Below, piece by piece: positions 45,601 through 58,400 of a DNA stretch of 64,000 bases. The notes under the pieces are model-generated. The model made no database searches and was not told where the DNA came from. It saw only the letters and a program-made list of their open reading frames with translations. The translations under genes and the position numbers were made by a program. This DNA is from Argentina anserina (taxonomy: Eukaryota > Streptophyta > Magnoliopsida > Rosales > Rosaceae), in the NCBI RefSeq assembly GCF_933775445.1, contig NC_065877.1, positions 28,768,001-28,832,000 of the forward strand. The letters run 5' to 3'. The first letter of the stretch is position 1. The number at the start of each line of letters is the position of its first letter.

Positions 45601-47129
45601 TACAAATCGGATTGAATAACAAGAATTGAAATGGTCGTATTTTTCGATGCTTCATGAAAATATTTTATCACAAGAATATGTTTGTCCTCTCTTTATTTTT
45701 TAACTATAAAATTATCATGAAATTTCGTTATCTTGACAATGCTCATATCATATGCTAAATAACATAATTATAAAAATTATATAAACATAACATATGCAAC
45801 AAATAGGCATATCATTTAACATGGTTAAGTAATTTACAAAACTGAGGCAATTATCGTATTCATGATACATGCCAATGACCATGTATAAATATATAATGCT
45901 TAAAAATTTAAATTATAGCATCACGATTTAATGACATGTTAAGTAGTTAAATTTTGATAAAAATCATAACATATACATGAATAATATTTAGAGAGTACTT
46001 TGCTCATATAACATATATAATTTCATTTATATGAATGAAATGCAATAAAACCGACAATACTAATTTAGATTGCCAAATAAACTGCATATTTAAGCGATTC
46101 TTGATCTTATGATTTCATATTACTCGTCACATGGTTATAAATAAATCACATGCAAAAAACAACAATACTTATATGATTAATCACTTTAATCATATGTAAT
46201 GAAATTTCATTTGATTTTAATTTACCTTATTCAATAAAGGTAATAAATAATATATAAAAAGTAAAGTGGATTGCACATTTACCATTTATATAGTAATTGT
46301 TAAATTGAGATCAGTAACAATGAATAGTAAATATGATTCACTGAGCGGTAAAAGTAATAAAATAATTACTTTTGACTGTTTACCATAAGAGGTAATTAAG
46401 TTTTTTTATAACCAGCGGTAAAAACTTTTTTTTTTCATGGGTCGGGTCGGGTCCACGGATTTGATTTAGGAGTCGCCGGGTCGAGGTCTGCAACCGCAGA
46501 TATGAGTAAAGCATCGTCAGATTTGTAAATTTGCCAAATAACTGCTTTTAACTGTGGTTGCTCTTCACGTTCGATTGAATCATCGCATTTCTCGCATTAA
46601 TCGTCGTAGTATAAGTGATACGTTACATACAAAACAATTAGAATTATATGATTAGGTCACATTTAATCATATAATGAATACTAATTTACTAATTCACCAC
46701 ATAGAGTAGTAAATAGTCAAATAGTAAATTAAATAATTAGGTCACATTTAATCATAATTTCCAATTAAATTAAGTGAATAGAAAATATGATTCACTGAGT
46801 GTAATAATTTAAATTACCTTGTCAATTATACCAGAAAGAGGTAAACATATTTCTTTATGTTCTTAGGTTGGAATCAGAGCGACCAGCGGACCAGGTCAGG
46901 TTGAGTTCATCGATCTACAAAAACTATGCTGCAACGGCGTTCAGTCGATGGAGGGGAGCGGCGGTGAGAACAAAGAAGGAGGTGGGTGCCCAGATAAGAA
47001 ATCTGGGTGCTTTTATGCCTTCTTCGTCTTCTTCTACAAAAATTCTTTCCGGTAGAAGTTATGGTTTCTAGGTTTTCATGTTAGTTTCTTTGGCTAAAAC
47101 TCAAATCCAAAACAAACGTGCTGATAACG

Positions 47130-47340
47130 TGTTGTAGGGAAAATGGAATGATCTACTCATCTCATTGATAATCCCCTCTATATAGGGGTCAAGATTATAA
47201 TAGAAATAAATGGTAATTATAATGGCAGTTAAGGCTACATAATGACGATTGATCTGTTACATCCGTTGACCATAAACGTCATTAACTCATTCCTTTATTT
47301 GTTTTAACGAAGGCACACTAATGGTGTTTTTCCTTCAACA
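47130..47340 (-). repeat. 5' LTR of decayed copia element
   Basis: 211 bp. On the minus strand it carries a TATA-like CCTATATA and ends CCCTACAACA, followed by CGTTATCAGCACG. Confidence 0.85.
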
Positions 47341-47856
47341 AAAATATAATTATCTATATTTATATTTTATAATAGATAAGTAAAGAATTATTTCTCTTCT
47401 TATATTTTTATTGTTATATATTTTTTGGTAATTTCATATGCCTTGATTAAGTCAAAACTACCTAGGAAAAAAATAGAGGTCCAAGTGCCATTTTGGGAGG
47501 TATGAATATAAGCTCCCTTTATCTATTTTTCATTTTCATTGTCGATTTTATTTTTTAAAGAAGAGCAAAAAATTAAATTACATTGAAATGAGATAGATGA
47601 TAATGTCTTAACATAACTTACCTTAGTTTGACATTCTAACTTGAAAATTATGATTTTTTTAAGAAAGAACTAAATTGATGAATTTATAATCAAAATTTTC
47701 CACTTAATTTTCTATTTGATAAATATAATTATTTTCTTATAGAAAATTACTAATTAATTTCTCACAATATTGGTTTTTCGAAAATTTTAAGATTGTAATA
47801 TTTAAATTTTCTTAATTAGAGGTATATTTTAGTTTGAAACCTAAAAAACACGGATG

Positions 47857-48041
47857 TGTTCCGGGAGAATTACTATTCTACCCTTGTATGTGTCTTAGCC
47901 TATTAGGTTTCCTGTTAGGAGATAGATTAGCATCTCCGTAGTAGATTAGGACTCCGAATCCTACGGGATTGTGGTGTTGTAAATGCCTATATATAGGCCC
48001 CCATATCATTCAATAATATACAAGTATTTCATCCTCAAACA
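47857..48041 (+). repeat. 5' LTR, intact copia
   Basis: Starts TGTTCCGGGAG and ends CCTCAAACA. A TATA-like CTATATATAGG near 47988 should drive the element RNA. Confidence 0.96.
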
Positions 48042-48054
48042 CGTTATCAGCACG
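48042..48054 (+). other. Candidate primer-binding site, CGTTATCAGCACG
   Basis: Thirteen bases directly after the 5' LTR, identical in the decayed copia of the same lineage at 41298-47340 (minus strand). It is not the usual TGGTATCAGAGC. I could not match it to the 3' end of a known tRNA from memory; an internal (half-tRNA) primer is possible. Confidence 0.55.
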
Positions 48055-48107
48055 AAGCCCTAAAACCCTGAATCTTTTAGAGCATTCCGAAAATTTTTTT
48101 CTTCCCT

Positions 48108-48350
48108 TCCTCCGCCGCCGCAAGCTTCCGCCGCCGCATCCTCCTGCCGCCGCCGCAAGCTCCTGCCGCCGCCGCAGCCCCTGCCTGCTGTCGCCGCAAC
48201 CCCCTGCTGCCCCTCGCAGCCCCTGCCCTCGCAGCCCCTGCCCTCGCAGCCCCTGCCCTCGCAAGCCCCGCAGCCCCGCAGCCCTGCAGCCCTGCAGCCC
48301 CGCAGCTCCTGCACGCAGCCCCGCAGCCCCGCAGCGCTTCCTCCGCAAAG
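48108..48350 (+). repeat. GC-rich leader with 15-bp tandem repeats
   Basis: CCGCCGC and CTGCAGC-type simple repeats, including three exact copies of CAGCCCCTGCCCTCG (48217-48261). Units that are multiples of three keep antisense frames open; those frames are not genes. Confidence 0.85.
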
Positions 48351-48488
48351 AAATCTTTTTGCCCCGCAAGTTCCCGCATCAAATCACTCAAAATTGCTCC
48401 TCCCGCATATTCACGCAAGAGACGTGAAAGTCACAAGCAAGGACTTCGCTCAAGAGAAGCTACTCCCGTATACTACAAACCTCCCAAG

Positions 48489-48831
48489 GTAAATTTTTAT
48501 AAACGTTCCCGCTTTTGAACGTATAGATATATTATATCGGGCGCTATTAGCCTTCTTCTTGTCTTAATTCCGGGCTTTCTTATAACGCCGATGAGACTAT
48601 AGAGGGATGGGTTTCCCCTCTTGGTCGATGTTTTCTGTGTGACGGTCCTGGGGGAGTCACGATTGTTTTGAAGGAAGTTAATCGATTTTCGTGTGGTCGC
48701 CTGAGTGCACCGCTGTTTTGGGTGCGATCATGAGTATCGCCGCTTGCATCGATTTTTCTTGTGACCATATACGTCACCCCTTCTAATTCCTATTATACTT
48801 GAATCTAATCGATTCCGTATTCGTTTTGTAG
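48489..48831 (+). other. Predicted leader intron, intact copia
   Basis: Donor CCCAAG/GTAAAT at 48489; acceptor TTCGTTTTGTAG at 48831, directly before the gag ATG. The leader before the donor (48042-48488) has no ATG, while the 343-nt intron has several that would block gag translation if retained. Prediction only. Confidence 0.6.
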
Positions 48832-49899
48832 ATGTCATCGCCATCTCGACCGGAATTTGGCCTTCTTGATCTAGAAGGAAAGGAATACCACCGCTGGGTT
48901 TCCGACATGGAACTCGCGTTTGAGAGCCGAGGGATTGAAGGCATGTTTGCCGACCCTCCTGCTGATTTCCCACATATGGCTAAGACTCAGACTCTCATCT
49001 TTATGAGACGTCACATCCATGCAACTCTCAAGAGGCAATACTTGAACGTAAAAGATCCTAAAGAATTATGGGACAAACTACGCTTGCGGTACAACAACGT
49101 TCATGATAAGCTTCTTCCTGAATTGACTGTTAGATGGGACAACATCCGTCTATTGGACTATAAGAGAGTGGATGATTTCAATCAGGATATGCTATGCTTG
49201 CAATCTGATCTTGGCACCGTTGGTGTCATCAAGACCGACCTAGATCTTCTCAATAAGACATTGGACACGTTTCCAAGCAACTATGAGGTTCAAGCTCATA
49301 CGTACCGCACTCATGTAGAGGAAGGGAAGATCCGGTCTTTTGCCGACCTAATGGCACTCTTAGCTAAGAAGGAGAGACATTCTGAGATTCTCCTCAACAA
49401 CAACAATAGACCTGTTGGCACTAAAAGAATTTCTACGCCACAGGCTAACTATGGGAAAGCTCCTAAGCAAAAGAATCAATCAAGGAACGCTCCATATCAG
49501 CACCAAAATAACAACTCTCGTGGTGGGAGGCAACAAGGCCGATCTCGGCCTCGGTCCAATACATGGACCCGTGATGGTGGCGGCGCCGCACCCTCAGGGG
49601 GAGGCCGTCCCCGTCCCACACTCCAAGGAGGCCGTGCACCTCCTAATGCCTCCACTTCCGGTAATGGCAAGTCTCCATGCTTCAAATGTGGCTCCTTCAA
49701 GCACTTTAATCGCGATTGTCGCGCTAGCAAAGAGATGATCAAGGCTTACTCCGCCTACAAGAAGTTTCTACAACCCGAATCGAATCATGTAGATGAGGAC
49801 CATGAGATCGAGACTCACCATATCTCCATGAAACCCGAGCCCCTTGCTTCTAAAGCTAGGCCTCCGGTTGCTACCATGGATACTCCCGACTTTGATTAG
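48832..49899 (+). CDS. copia Gag (nucleocapsid) protein
   Basis: 355 aa. It starts MSSPSRPEFGLLDLEGKEYH, with a copia gag-type N-terminal half rich in W, L and charged residues (FGLLDLEGKEYHRWVSDME; LWDKLRLRYNNVHDKLLPEL). A basic, Asn/Gly/Arg-rich linker follows (about 205-280), then one zinc knuckle C283-x2-C286-x4-H291-x4-C296 (CFKCGSFKHFNRDC). Gag should assemble virus-like particles and package the RNA. The ATG follows an acceptor-like TTTTGTAG. The ORF ends 957 bp before pol, so there is no simple frameshift or readthrough fusion. The linker contains a GC-rich patch unlike the rest. Intact and probably expressed from a spliced leader (inferred). Confidence 0.93.
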   Translation: MSSPSRPEFGLLDLEGKEYHRWVSDMELAFESRGIEGMFADPPADFPHMAKTQTLIFMRRHIHATLKRQYLNVKDPKELWDKLRLRYNNVHDKLLPELTVRWDNIRLLDYKRVDDFNQDMLCLQSDLGTVGVIKTDLDLLNKTLDTFPSNYEVQAHTYRTHVEEGKIRSFADLMALLAKKERHSEILLNNNNRPVGTKRISTPQANYGKAPKQKNQSRNAPYQHQNNNSRGGRQQGRSRPRSNTWTRDGGGAAPSGGGRPRPTLQGGRAPPNASTSGNGKSPCFKCGSFKHFNRDCRASKEMIKAYSAYKKFLQPESNHVDEDHEIETHHISMKPEPLASKARPPVATMDTPDFD

Positions 49900-50856
49900 T
49901 CGTTTTAGCTTTATGATTCAAGTATTGTTATGGCCGACCGCCATTGTTATATTCATCGACTTTGTAATAGTCTTTTGATTTTGGAATTAGAAGTTCATGT
50001 GTGATGTATTAAAGATTGGCATTCAATAAAATTTCTCATTTCTTGCTTACAAGACGATCTCTTTGAGAATTTTATTTATCCGACACTTAGCATGATGATC
50101 AACGTGTGCAACTCACGTGGTTTTTAAATTGGACGTTTTTGGGTTACATGGGACCCCAATAGCACTACATTGTGAATTTGGAACTTAAAATTCGGAAAAC
50201 GAACCTCGGAACGTCGAAAAACGACGTCGTTTTGCCTTGGCCGGCCCCGGTTACTATTCCGGCGTTTCCGGCTCGTTTTGCCGGCGTATTCGCCGTCTTC
50301 CGGCCATTTTCCGGCGTTTCCGGCACCGCCACTCGGTTCCTGCCGGCGTCCCCTGTCGGACCTGAAGTCCCGGCCTCCATACCGGCCAGTTTCGACAGCC
50401 GCCGGCCGGTTTTTCCGGCAATAGGTGCCGCCGGTTTTCCACCGAGTTTTTCGACGATTTTTTCGTCGTTTTCTTGTGATTCTTCCGGCATATTGCAGCA
50501 GCCCCTGCTGCCACGTTTTCCTCGTCCAAAATTCACCCGGTTTAGAGTTCTTTCGACATGGTTTTCCGGTTTGTTTTTCCGGTTTTCTCCAAGTCCGTTA
50601 TATGCACTCACCGGTACTCTTTGTGTGTGTTTCCACACCATTATTGGATGGTTTCTACCACCCTCATTTACTGTTTGGTATTTCACTGCTTCAATACCAT
50701 GATTTCCAACTCTTTAGTTGAAGAATGTAGTACTATTGCCATGTGATACATTCGATGGGATCGACCTTCGTTCCGATTCCCATTCTTACAATATCCTACG
50801 GCGTATTGTATAGAATTGTTCCCGTGTCGCTGACTCTCTTAATTGTCATTTTGTAG
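49900..50856 (+). other. gag-pol spacer, intact copia
   Basis: 957 bp without a retrotransposon domain. The middle (50220-50520) is GC-rich and built from CCGGCG-type words, so it is open on both strands but has no recognisable protein. The 3' end is pyrimidine-rich and finishes TTGTCATTTTGTAG, an acceptor-like sequence directly before the pol ATG. Confidence 0.7.
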
Positions 50857-53800
50857 ATGTCCCGCGGTGAAATCGAATGTCTAGCTGATTGCGGAACCAC
50901 CCACACTGTCCTACGGCACAGGCAGTTGTTCACGGATCTAGTGTTTTCGACTTCTTCGATGACTACAATGATTGGCTCGAAATCCATCATTCAAGGAAGA
51001 GGCACTGCTTCTTTCATGTTGCCTAATGGTACGACTCTTAACGTCGTAGACGCTCTTTATGCGCCGAAGTCTCCCCGCACCTTGCTAAGTTTTAAGGACA
51101 CACGTGCCAATGGTTTTCACCTCGATACTTATGTTGAGAATGGAGAGGAATATCTTTGCGTTACCTCTGAGAAAGCAGGCCATCGCCGCATCTTAGAGAA
51201 GATGAAGAGTCTTGGGAATGGTTTGTATCTTACTTCCATTCGGATCTTTGAATCATATGCGGTTGAACGCAACTTTTGTGATTCGGACTCTTATATGCTT
51301 TGGCATGCCCGTCTTGGGCACCCTGGACGTGATATGATGATTAGAATTCTTAAGAATTCACATGGTCATCCATTTTTCAAGTCCCGGAAGCGATTGGAGG
51401 ATCACCTCACCCGTGCTCCGCACGGTGAGGCCGTGCCGACCCATGCACCGCATGGTGAGGCCGAGCATGCCTCACTCGGCAGCTCCACGGCTTTCATGCC
51501 GTCGGTGGCGGCATCCCCTCCTTCACAGGAGCTTGTGATGCCTCCCGTGCTTTCACATGCCTCCATGGCAATTTCTGATGCCCATCGCTCGTTTTGCAAA
51601 GCTTGTTCTCTTGCTAAATTTCAAGGAAGTCCTTCTTTTGCTAAGGCTTCAACCGAGAACATTCCATTCTTACAACGTATCCAAGGTGACATTTGTGGAC
51701 CTATTCAACCAGAATGCGGACCTTTTCGATATTTTATGGTATTGGTTGATGCATCGACGCGTTGGTCACACGTCGCATTGCTATCCACAAGGAATGCTGC
51801 ATTTGCTAAGTTATTAGCTGAGATCATCAAACTTCGGGCTCACCACCCCGATTATCCTATCAAATCCATTCGTTTGGATAATGCTGGAGAATTCACCTCC
51901 AAAACTTTTGATGATTACTGCATGTCTATTGGGATCGAAGTTGAACATCCCGTTCCTCATGTTCATTCACAGAACGGTCTAGCAGAGGCTACCATCAAGC
52001 GTATTCAGCTTGTTGCTCGGGCAATGGTTATGGGTACTAACCTGCCGGTCTCTGCGTGGGGATATGCAGTGTTGCATGCAGCGACACTTATTCGTTTCCG
52101 ACCCGCGGCTAACCAAGCGTTTAGTGCGTACCAGATGGTAACTGGTTACGAACCCAATATTTCACACTTACGCATCTTTGGTTGCGCCGTTTATGTGCCT
52201 ATTACGCCTCCGCTGCGTACTAAGATGGGTCCTCAGAGACGATTAGGTATCTATGTTGGCTATAATTCCCCAACGATTGTCCGCTACTTAGAACCAACCA
52301 CCGGAGATCTCTTTACTGCAAGATTTGCAGATTGTCACTTTGATGAGACATGCTTCCCGTCGTTAGGGGGAGATGGGAATGTTATCATTCCAAATGAACG
52401 TCAGGAATTGACGTGGTGTGTCCCCACTATGTCTCATTATGATCCCCGCACTGCTCAAAGTGAGTTAGAAGTGCAACGCATTATCGACCTCCAGAAAGTC
52501 GCGGATTCGATGCCCGACGGCTTTGTAGATATTGCTAAAGTGACGAGATCAAACATACCCGCTGCGAACGTACCGGCACGGTTGGATGTCCCGAAATACG
52601 GGCGTGGAAGACAAGCTCCTGGACCTAGCAACGTTGGCACCGCCCCTGACAGTGGGACGGAGGCCGACGGCGGCACCACCGTACGCCGTGGTGTTGCCGG
52701 CGCCCCTTGTGGCGACGATGCTGAGATGGCCCGGCATGGAGCAGCTTCGGCCTCGGCTCCTCAAAGAAAAAGGGGGAGACCGATAAACTCTAGGGATTCA
52801 AAACCTAGAAAGAAGCGAATGACTAAGGCACAGCGCGTCATCAACGATGAATCACCATCGTATGAAGTTGTCTCTGATTACAGCTATGTCCATGAATCAA
52901 CTCAAGTGTTTCCGTGGGACGCTATGGAACCTTGTTTGATGCCAGAGAACAACGAAATCTCAGTGAACTACACAAGTGAGCAGTCGGTCCGAAACCGAGC
53001 CACTACATGCATTGATGACGTTTTCGCTTATTCCGTCGCACTTGAGATCATATCTGAAGATGACGTTGAACCTCGCTCTGTAGCTGAATGCGAACGCAGA
53101 GCAGATTGGCTGAAGTGGAAGGAAGCAATCCAGGCAGAACTTGACTCATTAGCGAAGCGAGAAGTCTTCGGAAAGGTTGAATTGACTCCAAGAGATGTCA
53201 AACCTGTTGGACATAAATGGGTCTTCGTTCGTAAGCGTAATGAGATGAACGAGATCGTGCGTTATAAGGCAAGACTCGTGGCGCAAGGATTCTCACAACG
53301 ACCTGGTATTGACTATGAAGAGACTTATTCTCCTGTTATGGACATCATTACCTTCCGCTACCTTATTAGTCTGGTAGTGTCCGAAAGACTAAACATGCAG
53401 CTTATGGATGTGGTCACAGCTTATCTCTATGGGGATCTTGACGCAGAGATATACATGAAAGCTCCTGAGGGACTACCTTTACCTCCATCAAGTGCCTCCA
53501 GACCACGGAGTGCTCATGCAGTCAGATTACGTCGTTCGTTGTACGGGTTAAAGCAATCCGAAAGAATGTGGTACAATCGGTTGCATCAATACTTGGTGAG
53601 AAGGGGTTACAAGAATGATGAACTATGCCCATGCGTGTTCATACGAAAGACAAATTCCGGATTCGTCATCGTTGCGGTCTACGTTGATGACATGAACATA
53701 ATCGGTACTCTTGATGAGATTGAAGAGACCGTGTCTTATCTGAAGTCGGAATTTGAGATGAAAGACCTAGGGAGGACGAAATTCTGTCTCGGCCTTGAGC

Positions 53801-54843
53801 TTGTGCATAGGGCCGACGGCATCTTAGTGCATCAGTCAAATTACACGCAGAAGATGCTTCGACGTTTCAATATGGATCTATGCAGTCCATTGTCTACTCC
53901 CATGGTCGTCCGAAGTCTAGATATCAAGAAGGATCCCTTCCATCCTAAAGAGGATGATGAAGACGTTCTTGGTCTTGAAGTTCCATACCTTAGTGCGATT
54001 GGGGCACTATTGTATCTTGCTCAATGCACTAGACCGGACATATCTTTCGCAGTGAACTTATTGGCTAGATTTAGCTCCGCACCCACGCTACGTCATTGGA
54101 ATGGAATCAAGCATTTGTTTCGATACTTGAAAGGTTCCATTGACATGGGATTGTTCTACCCCTATTGCAGAGAGAACACCACCACGGTATCTCCCCACAC
54201 CACCTCCGTCGCCGACCCCGGCCTTGCCGCCGTACGCCGCAGCGACGCCGCCGGCCGCCATGGCGTGGAGACCGTGCGCGGTGCCGAGAGCAGCCACCGG
54301 TCCCGTGCACCTCTATCCCCCGATGCAAAGACTCCAAACAACTTGTTAGTTGGTTATGCCGACGCAGGGTACCTCTCTGACCCTCAAAAGGCTCGTTCTC
54401 AAACCGGTTATGTGTTTACCATTGGGAATACGGCGATATCTTGGAGATCCACAAAGCAATCTCTTGTTGCTACTTCTTCGAATCACGCGGAGATCATCGC
54501 TCTCCATGAAGCAGTGAAAGAATGTGTTTGGCTACGATCACTTGTTCGCCATATTCGTGATTCTTGTGGATTAGTCTCTACAACTGATCAACCTACGTGC
54601 ATTTATGAAGATAATGCTGCTTGCATAGAGCAGACAAAGTTAGGTTTCATCAAGGGAGACAACACCAAGCATATTTCGCCTAAGTTCTTCTACAACATTC
54701 AACAACAGAAGTTCTTGAATGTTCAGATCAATCAAGTGAGTTCAGAATCCAATGTTGAGGATTTGTTCACCAAGTCTTTGCCTAAATCTACTTTTGTGAA
54801 ACATGTGAAGAGCATTGGCATGCGTCGTTTATCGGAACACTAG
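50857..54843 (+). CDS. copia Pol polyprotein (protease, integrase, RT, RNase H)
   Basis: 1328 aa without interruption. Domains in order: aspartic protease at the very N-terminus (ADCGTTHTV, catalytic Asp11; the usual DSG is DCG here); pre-integrase zinc finger (WHARLGHP at 149, CKAC at 247-250); integrase catalytic triad D278, D341 (RLDNAGEF) and E377, with the hallmark 35 residues between the last two; RT (about 760-1010) with YVDD at 942-945; RNase H (about 1160-1310) with DNAACIEQ and FTKSLPK. Protease before integrase before RT is the copia order. Compared with copia relatives it has extra GC-rich stretches: after the HxH part of the zinc finger (about 188-235), between integrase and RT (about 580-640), and between RT and RNase H (about 1105-1155). 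All keep the frame. The ORF opens with its own ATG after TTTTGTAG. Confidence 0.95.
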   Translation: MSRGEIECLADCGTTHTVLRHRQLFTDLVFSTSSMTTMIGSKSIIQGRGTASFMLPNGTTLNVVDALYAPKSPRTLLSFKDTRANGFHLDTYVENGEEYLCVTSEKAGHRRILEKMKSLGNGLYLTSIRIFESYAVERNFCDSDSYMLWHARLGHPGRDMMIRILKNSHGHPFFKSRKRLEDHLTRAPHGEAVPTHAPHGEAEHASLGSSTAFMPSVAASPPSQELVMPPVLSHASMAISDAHRSFCKACSLAKFQGSPSFAKASTENIPFLQRIQGDICGPIQPECGPFRYFMVLVDASTRWSHVALLSTRNAAFAKLLAEIIKLRAHHPDYPIKSIRLDNAGEFTSKTFDDYCMSIGIEVEHPVPHVHSQNGLAEATIKRIQLVARAMVMGTNLPVSAWGYAVLHAATLIRFRPAANQAFSAYQMVTGYEPNISHLRIFGCAVYVPITPPLRTKMGPQRRLGIYVGYNSPTIVRYLEPTTGDLFTARFADCHFDETCFPSLGGDGNVIIPNERQELTWCVPTMSHYDPRTAQSELEVQRIIDLQKVADSMPDGFVDIAKVTRSNIPAANVPARLDVPKYGRGRQAPGPSNVGTAPDSGTEADGGTTVRRGVAGAPCGDDAEMARHGAASASAPQRKRGRPINSRDSKPRKKRMTKAQRVINDESPSYEVVSDYSYVHESTQVFPWDAMEPCLMPENNEISVNYTSEQSVRNRATTCIDDVFAYSVALEIISEDDVEPRSVAECERRADWLKWKEAIQAELDSLAKREVFGKVELTPRDVKPVGHKWVFVRKRNEMNEIVRYKARLVAQGFSQRPGIDYEETYSPVMDIITFRYLISLVVSERLNMQLMDVVTAYLYGDLDAEIYMKAPEGLPLPPSSASRPRSAHAVRLRRSLYGLKQSERMWYNRLHQYLVRRGYKNDELCPCVFIRKTNSGFVIVAVYVDDMNIIGTLDEIEETVSYLKSEFEMKDLGRTKFCLGLELVHRADGILVHQSNYTQKMLRRFNMDLCSPLSTPMVVRSLDIKKDPFHPKEDDEDVLGLEVPYLSAIGALLYLAQCTRPDISFAVNLLARFSSAPTLRHWNGIKHLFRYLKGSIDMGLFYPYCRENTTTVSPHTTSVADPGLAAVRRSDAAGRHGVETVRGAESSHRSRAPLSPDAKTPNNLLVGYADAGYLSDPQKARSQTGYVFTIGNTAISWRSTKQSLVATSSNHAEIIALHEAVKECVWLRSLVRHIRDSCGLVSTTDQPTCIYEDNAACIEQTKLGFIKGDNTKHISPKFFYNIQQQKFLNVQINQVSSESNVEDLFTKSLPKSTFVKHVKSIGMRRLSEH

Positions 54844-55020
54844 AGTTTGGTAGACTTCAGGGGGAGTCTACATCACATGTTAAGATCCTTAAGTAGTTGG
54901 TGCGTTGTGCTCTTTTTCCCTTCGATCAAGCTTTTGTTTTACCCAAGAGGTTTTTGTTTTGCTTGACAAGGTTTTTACCGAGGCAACAATGTGTGCACCA
55001 TGCAACCTAGGCATGCGACA

Positions 55021-55030
55021 CAAGGGGGAG
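55021..55030 (+). other. Polypurine tract, intact copia
   Basis: CAAGGGGGAG abuts the 3' LTR; it primes plus-strand DNA synthesis in this family. Confidence 0.9.
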
Positions 55031-55215
55031 TGTTCCGGGAGAATTACTATTCTACCCTTGTATGTGTCTTAGCCTATTAGGTTTCCTGTTAGGAGATAGA
55101 TTAGCATCTCCGTAGTAGATTAGGACTCCGAATCCTACGGGATTGTGGTGTTGTAAATGCCTATATATAGGCCCCCATATCATTCAATAATATACAAGTA
55201 TTTCATCCTCAAACA
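55031..55215 (+). repeat. 3' LTR, intact copia
   Basis: 185 bp, identical by eye to 47857-48041, followed by the GGATG duplication. Its promoter faces the beta-COP gene. Confidence 0.96.
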
Positions 55216-55220
55216 GGATG

Positions 55221-55454: not shown

Positions 55455-58400
55455 ATGACGGAGAAGTCATGCACTCTCCTGGTCCATTTCGACAAGGGCA
55501 CGCCGGCCCTCGCCAACGAGATCAAGGGAGCTCTCGAAGGCAACGACGTCGAGGCCAAGGTCGAAGCCCTCAAGCAAGCCATCATGCTCCTCCTCAACGG
55601 CGACACCATCCCCCACCTCTTCATCACCATCATCCGCTACGTCCTCCCCTCCGAGGACCACACCGTCCAGAAGCTCCTCCTCCTCTACCTCGAGATCATC
55701 GACAAGACCGATTCCCGCGGCAAGGTCCTCCCGGAGATGATCCTCATCTGCCAGAACCTCCGCAACAACCTACAGAGCCCCAACGAGTACATCCGCGGCG
55801 TCACTCTCCGTTTCCTCTGCCGGTTGAACGAGTCCGAGATCATCGAGCCGTTGATTCCTTCGATTCTGGCCAATCTGGAGCACCGGCATCCGTTTGTGAG
55901 ACGGAACGCCGTCAGCGCCGTCATGTCGGTGTACAGGCTGCCGCACGGCGAGCAAATGCTGGTGGATGCGCCGGAGATTGTGGATCGGTTCTTGGCTTCG
56001 GAGCAGGATCCTTCTAGTAAGAGAAACGCTTTCCTTATGCTGTTTAATTGTGCTCAGGATAGAGCTGTTAGCTATTTGTTTTCGCATATCGATAGGATCA
56101 CTGATTGGGGTGAGCAGCTCCAGATGGTTGTGTTGGAGTTGATTAGGAAGGTTTGTAGAGTCAATAAGGGTGAGAAGGGGAAGTACATTAAGGTTATTAT
56201 ATCATTGCTCAATGCTCCGTCGAGTGCTGTTGTTTACGAGTGTGCCAATACACTTGTTTCGCTGTCGTCTGCGCCAACAGCCATTAGAGCTGCGGCCAAT
56301 ACGTATTGCCAGTTGTTGTTATCGCAGAGTGACAACAATGTGAAGCTGATAGTGCTCGATAGGATTAATGAGCTCAAGGCTTCGCATAGGGAGATATTGG
56401 TGGAGCTGGTTATGGATGTGCTGAGGGTGCTTTCCAGTCCGAATCTTGATATTAGGAGGAAGACCCTTGATATTGTTCTTGAGTTGATTACTCCAAGGAA
56501 TATTGACGAGGTTGTGATGATGTTGAAGAAGGAGGTTGTCAAGACTCAGAGTGGTGAGCTTGAGAAGAATGGGGAATACAGGCAGATGTTGGTGCAAGCT
56601 ATTTATTCATGTGCAGTTAAGTTTCCAGAGGTGGCAAGCACTGTGGTGCATCCTTTGATGGATTTCTTGGGTGATTCCAATGTTGCTTCCGCCTTGGATG
56701 TTGCTATTTTTGTTCGTGAGATAATTGAAACCAATCCAAAGTTGCGTGTTTCAATAATAACAAGGCTGTTGGACACATTTTACCAGATTCGGACTTCAAG
56801 GGTGTGTACCTATGCCCTTTGGATTATTGGGGAGTATTGTCTGTCACTTTCTGAGGTCGAGAATGGGATTGCTACAATTAAGCAGTGTCTAGGAGAGCTC
56901 CCGTTTTACACGGCTTCTGAGGAAAGCGAGACTCAAGAGGTTTCAAAGAATTCTCAGGTAGTAAGCTCGTCGACTGTCTCTTCCAGAAGACCTGTGGTTC
57001 TTGCAGATGGGACCTATGCTACCCAGTCTGCTGCACTTGAAACTGCTATGTCTGCACCTCTCCTTGTTCAAGGATCATTGGCTTCTATCGGGAACTTGAG
57101 ATCGTTGATTCTCTCCGGTGACTTTTTCCTCGAGTCAGTTGTGTCATGCACACTTACAAAGCTTGTTTTAAGATTAGAAGAGGTCCAGCCTTCAAGAGTC
57201 GAAGTGAACAAGGCAACTACACAAGCATTGCTGATCATGGTCTCTATGCTGCAACTGGGTCAATCATCAGCCCTTCCACATCCAATTGACAACGATTCTC
57301 ATGATAGAATTGTTCTTTGCATCAGACTGCTATGCAATAAAGGTGAAGAAGTAAAGAGAATATGGTTGAGATCTTGTCGTGAGAGTTTTGTCAAAATGCT
57401 TGAAGATAAGAAGCTCCGGGAAGCAGAGGAGACTAGAGCTATGGCTCAGATATCAAATGCACAGCCAGATGACCTTATTGATTTCTACCATCTGAAGAGT
57501 AAAAAGGTAAGGCTGCACTGTCTTACTTGTCTCTTTTGTGCTGTAAGATTACGTGTTTAAAGAACTGTTGGGCTGTGTTTTTTTTTGTTTTTTTAAATAA
57601 TTTCTTTCGTTTTTCTTTTCTAGTGTTGGACAACAATTTTTTTTCTTTTCTGAAGACAAAAAAAATTTCCTATTAGTACGGTTTCCTTGTTTTCTGATGC
57701 ACGAGGTCTTATTTACCATCTCATCTGAGATATAAATAAGAATTATGAAAGCTTGTCCAGTTGTCCCTAATCCTGATGTATGTTAAATGATACTCTTATG
57801 AATAGTGATCAGACCCGTCTCGATGGTTTTAAGGGACCTTTGTTGGGACCGTGTAATCATGCATATAAAGCTTTAAGTTGCCGCACATAATTAAGTTGAT
57901 GCAAAAAAAAAAGGGGTGGTTAGGCCTATGCTGTCAGTCTGTCACACATATCACCCCTACTTTAAGCTGTCTGTGTAGTTAGTAGTGACAAAGTTCAACT
58001 CAAATGTACCTTCTTATTTTTACCCCCTCTTTAGTTTCAATTTGGTATGATAGTTTTTGTGTGTGTTCCTGCATCATTTGGAATAATAAGGAATGATGTG
58101 TTTCTTCGATTATTTTAATTTGTAAATCGACTGTTTCTATAAGACCAACATTTTGGTCCCAAACATTTAGAGCTATACAGAATCTTGGCAGTAAGAAGTG
58201 CAGAAGATAGATCAGTGACACTGGGTGAATCAAATTGATTTTTGTATGCTATTTTCCTTTCTAATTATGCATGTCTTTTGTAGGGTATGAGCCAGCTTGA
58301 GGTGGAAGATCAGGTCCAAGATGACCTCAAACGTGCCACTGGAGAGTTTGTCAAGGATGGAGATGACGCAAATAAACTGAACCGCATTCTGCAGCTCACA

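What the first reader, a model, noticed from the sequence alone, without database searches (positions are those of the whole stretch)
48042..50860. gag and pol of a young copia element look like two splice products of one leader
Seen: gag and pol are separate ATG-started ORFs about 950 bp apart. Both ATGs directly follow the same string (TTTTGTAG, then ATGTC). The leader before a good donor (48489) has no ATG, while the segment up to gag has several. Known: most copia elements make one Gag-Pol ORF, and some plant copia elements tune Gag:Pol by splicing. Inferred: one donor is joined alternatively to a gag acceptor (48831) or a pol acceptor (50856), giving separate Gag and Pol mRNAs, much like a retroviral subgenomic RNA but for pol.
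Basis: partly seen in the sequence, partly recalled or inferred. Interest (0 to 1): 0.75.

Follow-up and report, generated by a model that had tools for sequence, protein, structure and literature searches.

The report
Plant retrotransposon splicing separate Pol mRNA
A young copia retrotransposon in a rose-family plant appears to make its enzymes (Pol) from their own spliced messenger RNA, as foamy viruses do, and the genome holds DNA copies of that spliced RNA joined at exactly the predicted bases.

Summary
The element (47857-55215, identical LTRs) has gag and pol ORFs 957 nt apart; each ATG directly follows TTTTGTAG, found nowhere else in the element. Searching the host genome (apparently Argentina anserina) for the predicted junction 48488/50857 found three element copies joined exactly there. 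One has both LTRs and a 5-bp target duplication. L032 and L033 are each closer to unspliced copies than to each other, so I read the three as independent reverse transcripts of a spliced pol RNA. I then predicted the pol junction of a second family (gag about half identical) from its own splice sites: one perfect 30-nt match, control 0. The gag splice (48488/48832) is inferred only: ATG-free leaders, upstream ATGs in the intron, an acceptor abutting the gag ATG in both families. No gag-junction copy was found, and the gag acceptor is not unusually conserved. The half-tRNA-Ile primer site and two separated ORFs match the Bianca lineage, whose expression strategy a 2019 survey left open. The closest functional analogue is foamy virus Pol. 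No RNA was examined.

The parts
47857..48041 (+). 5' LTR, 185 bp (target duplication GGATG at 47852-47856; TATATATA at 47988-47995, a putative TATA box by eye)
48042..48054 (+). primer-binding site CGTTATCAGCACG, pairs with the anticodon arm of tRNA-Ile(AAT) if A34 is inosine
   Evidence: lineage comparison from PMC6317226
48042..48488 (+). leader exon without ATG, 44% C, built of variable C-rich repeats
48489..48494 (+). splice donor GTAAAT; GT kept in 49 of 50 copies (L034-L083)
   Evidence: used in the junction copies
48489..48831 (+). putative gag intron, 38% T, four ATGs
   Evidence: inferred
48824..48831 (+). putative gag acceptor TTTTGTAG abutting the gag ATG
   Evidence: AG lost in 2 of 46 copies; inferred
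48832..49899 (+). gag ORF, 355 aa, with CCHC knuckle (by eye); Retrotran_gag_2 match below the curated cut-off
48489..50856 (+). pol intron (2368 nt, contains gag); absent from three genomic copies joined at exactly these ends
50025..50030 (+). AATAAA 126 nt after the gag stop, possible early poly(A) signal
   Evidence: not specially conserved; inferred
50849..50856 (+). pol acceptor TTTTGTAG abutting the pol ATG; no substitution in 45 copies
50857..54843 (+). pol ORF: protease-like, GAG-pre-integrase, integrase and RVT_2 domains
55031..55215 (+). 3' LTR; preceded by AAGGGGGAG (55022-55030), putative polypurine tract by eye; target duplication GGATG at 55216-55220

Best explanation
This is a young two-ORF copia element with two hallmarks of the Bianca lineage. 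Its transcript starts in the 5' LTR and carries an ATG-free leader that ends in a splice donor (48488/48489). SHOWN BY GENOMIC COPIES: the leader can be joined to an acceptor directly before the pol ATG (50856/50857), removing gag and everything between, so that Pol becomes the first ORF; such RNAs have been reverse transcribed and at least one was integrated as a complete LTR element. INFERRED: the same donor is also joined to the acceptor directly before the gag ATG (48831/48832), removing upstream ATGs and giving a Gag mRNA that may end early at a poly(A) site after gag; unspliced RNA is the genome; the Gag:Pol ratio is set by acceptor choice; [quoted passage not shown]
For: Three copies with the exact junction 48488/50857, 0 mismatches, control 0; with the looser pattern the same three, control 1. 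L031 has both LTRs and target duplication AACAC, LTRs 182/184 alike. L032 and L033 differ by 26/666 from each other but by 22/690 and 12/666 from an unspliced copy. Junction predicted for a second family found with 0 mismatches over 30 nt, control 0. Pol acceptor: 0 substitutions in 45 copies, as good as 36 of 950 windows of the intergenic stretch. 9 in-frame stops and 14 ATGs between gag and pol argue against readthrough or reinitiation. 34 of 37 leaders lack ATG, 2.5 expected; 4-6 upstream ATGs in the gag intron of 43 of 43 copies. Acceptor-like TTTTTGTAG before gag and TTGTAG before pol in the second family, T-rich acceptor-like stretches before both ATGs in L094.
Against: No RNA was examined. 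No gag-junction copy found. Gag acceptor no better conserved than its surroundings and its AG lost in 2 of 46 copies. AATAAA after gag not specially conserved. Junction copies are few: three, against 136 leader ends found with up to 3 mismatches, so they do not measure how often the splice is used. A gag-decayed subfamily (L064, L076) has lost TTTTGTAG before pol.
Confidence: 0.85

Rival explanations
1. Only the pol splice is real: Gag is translated from unspliced RNA despite the short upstream ORFs (leaky scanning or reinitiation), and the TTTTGTAG before gag is a relic or coincidence. This would be the foamy virus layout exactly.
For: No gag-junction copy; gag acceptor not better conserved than background, AG lost in L044 and L078.
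Against: Four to six upstream ATGs in 43 of 43 copies; ATG-free leader; TTTTTGTAG abuts the gag ATG in a second family; the intron is T-rich, 38% against 18% in the leader.
Confidence: 0.1
2. The pol splice happens but is a rare by-product: the junction copies record accidents, and working Pol comes from another route such as reinitiation on full-length RNA.
For: Only three junction copies among many copies; abundance of the RNA is unknown.
Against: Gag and pol are separated by stops in all frames and 14 ATGs; the pol acceptor is among the best-kept stretches of the spacer; acceptor and a junction copy recur in a second family.
Confidence: 0.06
3. The junction copies arose by DNA deletion, not splicing.
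For: Donor and acceptor share AG just before the breakpoint, a 2-base microhomology (sequence).
Against: Breakpoints fall exactly at GT and AG in 3 of 3 copies and in 1 of 1 in a second family with other flanking letters; L032 and L033 are not each other's closest relatives; L031 is a complete insertion with target duplication.
Confidence: 0.03

Closest known systems
Bianca lineage of plant Ty1/copia (Neumann et al. 2019, PMC6317226; passages read)
   Same: Primer site complementary to half of tRNA-Ile with inosine; gag and pol in two ORFs separated by a non-coding spacer.
   Different: Reported spacer averages 172 bp, here 957. The survey says the layout suggests a unique expression strategy and names none; no splicing is described in the passages seen.
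Foamy virus (spumaretrovirus) Pol expression (PMC3196705, PMC7828637; passages read)
   Same: Pol translated as a separate protein from a spliced subgenomic mRNA using a leader donor.
   Different: A retrovirus of animals; in feline foamy virus the pol acceptor lies inside gag (reference title seen). Here it lies after gag, directly before pol, and gag probably has its own acceptor.
EVD/ATCOPIA93 and other Ty1/copia short-GAG RNAs (PMC8892269, passages read; original paper not held)
   Same: Plant copia element using alternative splicing to separate Gag from Pol expression.
   Different: There the spliced, early-terminated RNA makes Gag and the unspliced RNA makes Gag-Pol; here splicing makes a Pol mRNA.
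BARE1 (PMC3735527, passages read)
   Same: Plant copia element with a spliced RNA for one product.
   Different: Spliced RNA makes only Gag; [quoted passage not shown] Here such copies exist for pol.
Ogre (Ty3/gypsy; described in PMC6317226 and PMC3735527 passages; original paper not held)
   Same: Two ORFs with a spacer that behaves as intron.
   Different: Splicing joins the two ORFs into one polyprotein; here the leader is joined to pol and gag is removed.
MLV SD' subgenomic RNA (PMC2925334, PMC10496198; abstract openings in listings only)
   Same: A spliced subgenomic RNA is co-packaged with genomic RNA.
   Different: Animal retrovirus, accessory product, not Pol.

Membership tests
Ty1/copia superfamily | LTRs with target duplication; integrase before reverse transcriptase in pol | tested here: met
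   LTRs 47857-48041/55031-55215, GGATG; rve in 50857-52401, RVT_2 in 52957-54141
Bianca lineage | primer site complementary to half of tRNA-Ile with inosine at position 34 | tested here: met
   CGTTATCAGCACG against tRNA-Ile(AAT) genes of the same genome; feature from PMC6317226
Bianca lineage | gag and pol as two ORFs separated by a non-coding spacer | tested here: met
   957-nt spacer; longer than the reported mean of 172 bp
Bianca lineage | position in reverse transcriptase trees | not tested
   no REXdb reference sequences at hand
Foamy-virus-like Pol expression (mode, not kinship) | leader donor joined to an acceptor that makes pol the first ORF | tested here: met
   three genomic junction copies and one in a second family; RNA itself not seen
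Foamy-virus-like Pol expression (mode, not kinship) | Pol protein made free of Gag | not testable with these tools
   needs protein data; stops between the ORFs agree with it
EVD/BARE type: gag-only splicing from one gag-pol ORF | one gag-pol ORF read from unspliced RNA | tested here: not met
   two ORFs with stops between
Ogre type: spacer intron whose removal fuses the two ORFs | donor near the gag end joined in frame to pol | tested here: inconclusive
   donors inside or after gag were not searched for; the junction copies found use the leader donor

The most novel reading that the evidence does not exclude
A whole copia lineage of flowering plants (Bianca) expresses Pol the way foamy viruses do, from its own spliced mRNA, using one ATG-free leader donor shared with a spliced and perhaps early-terminated Gag mRNA. 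The Pol mRNA is itself packaged and reverse transcribed, seeding gag-less pol-only copies that record splice-site use in the genome.
Probability: 0.6. Interest if true: 0.85.

Novelty: new variant of a known kind. Interest (0 to 1): 0.78.

Why it matters
The plant copia strategies described in the passages I saw give Gag its own RNA and leave Pol on the full-length RNA; a 2025 review (PMC12786077, passages read) names two main strategies, frameshifting or a full-length RNA plus a short Gag isoform. A separate spliced Pol mRNA would be an independent counterpart of the foamy virus scheme. It would explain how two-ORF Bianca elements make Pol, and it raises how Pol made without Gag enters particles. 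Junction copies in genomes give a cheap test that can be run on any sequenced plant.

Tried and rejected
Gag-junction copies were sought with two patterns and through any leader end not followed by G: none. Within-family conservation is a weak test because the copies are young. A first version counted alignment gaps as changes and was replaced, which counts substitutions only; for the spacer one search used 45 of 47 loci given (L071 and L077 dropped because their loci end before the acceptor; L001, L064 and L076 not given) and for the gag intron 46 of 46 (L063, L064, L076, L079 not given). Readthrough was rejected by stop counts. The viral-contig scan gave no relative. The genome-contig scan gave three loci: L094 was informative although its gag is split over two frames, L095 has a single long ORF, L096 was not studied. 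Another donor for the second family gave no junction copy. The 3' LTR of L032 was not in the stretch fetched (L085), and no 5' LTR of L033 was found in its locus, so only L031 is shown as a complete insertion. Structure prediction, fold search and RNA-family tools were not used. Literature: eight searches on splicing or two-ORF layout in such elements listed foamy viruses, EVD and BARE among others; in titles, abstract openings and the passages read I saw no spliced Pol mRNA in a plant copia element. The library holds open-licence papers only, and the original EVD and Ogre papers were not held.

Full report
WHAT IS THERE. The window holds a copia element at 47857-55215: 185-bp identical LTRs and a GGATG target duplication, a gag ORF 48832-49899 and a pol ORF 50857-54843. 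Pfam finds protease-like, GAG-pre-integrase, integrase and reverse transcriptase domains in two pieces of pol; the gag match (21.4 bits) is below the curated cut-off of 27. The ORFs share a frame, but 957 nt and 9 in-frame stops (gag's own included) separate them. TTTTGTAGATGTC occurs only before the two ATGs; in 2000 shuffles of 48489-50856 TTTTGTAG never stood before an ATG.

HOST AND COPIES. The window lies in a 236.8-Mb assembly. Its contig C5 has 28,859,254 bases, the contig length given for an Argentina anserina protein, so the host is very probably that species (Rosaceae). Leader ends of this family were found at 136 places with up to 3 mismatches.

THE DECISIVE TEST. A spliced RNA may now and then be reverse transcribed. 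I searched the genome for the leader end joined to ATGTC, the start shared by gag and pol: three places matched, and the reversed control matched once. All three run from the leader end, 48488, straight to 50857, the pol ATG, without the 2368 nt between. A stricter pattern with more of pol gave the same three, 0 mismatches at the fixed letters, control 0. L031 has both LTRs and a target duplication AACAC; its LTRs agree at 182 of 184 aligned bases, with one gap: a recent, complete insertion. The pol piece held (1503 nt) has no stop in L031, one in L032 and two in L033. L031 ends its leader in CCCTCCAAG, L032 and L033 in CTTCAAAG; copies with both leader types and a following G exist. Over the start of pol, L032 and L033 differ at 22 of 690 and 12 of 666 bases from an unspliced copy (L009) but at 26 of 666 from each other (34 loci compared, nearly all of the youngest subfamily). 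I read this as three separate events. For L032 and L033 the second LTR or target duplication was not shown.

A PREDICTION THAT CAME TRUE. A second family exists in the genome: its protein P0033 is 48% identical to the window's gag over half its length. I read three short stretches of one member on C7. Its gag ATG directly follows TTTTTGTAG; its pol ATG lies two bases after TTGTAG; upstream of gag lies CAAG|GTTAGT, followed by 485 nt, 44% T, with 16 ATGs. Two donors were possible, ten letters apart. The junction predicted with the second, 30 letters, matched the genome once with 0 mismatches, control 0; that with the first matched nowhere. The matching locus was not read further.

THE GAG HALF. 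A copy with 48488 joined to 48832 was not found. Leader ends not followed by G are four: the three pol junctions and L064, whose donor is mutated but whose intron is present. The gag acceptor has 3 substitutions in 46 copies against a mean of 4.9 for windows of that size, so it is not unusually conserved, and its AG is lost in L044 and L078. In favour: 34 of 37 leaders (those where primer site and leader end were both held; 299-602 nt) have no ATG, where shuffles give 2.5 on average (the leaders are related and made of C-rich repeats, so these are not 37 independent tests). The intron carries 4-6 ATGs in 43 of 43 copies, and an acceptor abuts the gag ATG in the second family too. Splicing puts A instead of T at -3 of the start codon (sequence; that this is favourable is recalled). 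One possible reason for the lack of gag-junction copies is that the Gag RNA ends near the AATAAA at 50025 and so lacks the 3' LTR; this is inference, and the hexamer is not specially conserved.

THE POL ACCEPTOR. It has no substitution in 45 copies; 36 of 950 windows of the spacer are as good, and its last 32 nt have 7 substitutions against a mean of 46.9. In the gag-decayed L064 and L076 the site reads TTTTGAGA. The donor's six letters have 1 substitution against a mean of 3.7, which 129 of 338 windows match.

WIDER RELATIVES. One search found 36 gag-like proteins, among them ones from Cuscuta, Orobanche, Lonicera, Rosa and Fragaria. In an alignment of 15 of them with the window's gag, 13 of 16 rows end in DF(D/Q) and 3 in LYD, so a separate gag with its own C-terminus is old. 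The length filter of that search hides fused Gag-Pol proteins. Of 694 pol-like proteins the best 120 were listed; 86 of these 120 match within the first 30 residues, and 73 of the 86 start with their own Met with at most 15 extra residues (the same filter applies). L094, plant-like sequence in a bacterial assembly, has T-rich stretches (48% and 46%) ending in AG before its gag and pol ATGs. L095, with the same primer site, has one long ORF.

LINEAGE. The primer site pairs with the anticodon arm of tRNA-Ile(AAT) genes of this genome if A34 is inosine. PMC6317226 (passages) reports half-tRNA-Ile priming and two separated ORFs for Bianca and says the layout suggests a unique strategy of polyprotein expression. 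Both features are met; the RT tree was not tested.

MECHANISM AND COMPARISON. The best-supported reading is one ATG-free leader whose donor is joined to the pol acceptor for a Pol mRNA and, probably, to the gag acceptor for a Gag mRNA, with unspliced RNA as genome. It works like foamy virus Pol expression (PMC3196705, PMC7828637, passages), though the element is a plant copia. EVD (PMC8892269) and BARE1 (PMC3735527) give Gag the spliced RNA (passages). The BARE authors argue that retrotransposons must avoid copying spliced RNA; these families did copy it at times.

LIMITS. No RNA or protein was examined. How often the pol splice occurs, whether the gag splice occurs, and how Pol enters particles are unknown.

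Noticed in passing
L063, L064, L076 (G000 loci): Copies that share leader, gag intron and spacer but have about 530 nt of stop-ridden sequence in place of gag and, in L064 and L076, a diverged pol start: a gag-decayed subfamily that may be mobilised in trans.
   Followed up: partly
48100-48340: The leader is made of C-rich repeats and varies from 299 to 602 nt between copies while nearly always lacking ATG.
   Followed up: partly
47121-47140, minus strand: A reverse complement of the primer site with the bases around it lies just upstream of the element, suggesting another element of this kind in opposite orientation (seen by eye).
   Followed up: no
55455-57560: A long ORF starts 240 nt after the element; it looks like a coatomer beta subunit (recalled, not tested), so the insertion may lie in its promoter or 5' UTR.
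   Followed up: no
50881-50898: The protease motif reads ADCGTTHT, with Cys where several homologues have Ser (ADSGTTHT); the second family reads ADCATTHT.
   Followed up: no
P0040 (Papaver somniferum gene model): A public gene model joins the gag N-terminus directly to MSPGEIEYLVDS, the pol start, as if the pol acceptor were used from a donor inside gag.
   Followed up: no
L094 (NZ_QPKJ02000023.1), L095 (CAKZGI010000010.1): Plant-like copia sequence sits in records titled as a Solirubrobacter genome and a cyanobacterial MAG, probably contamination.
   Followed up: no
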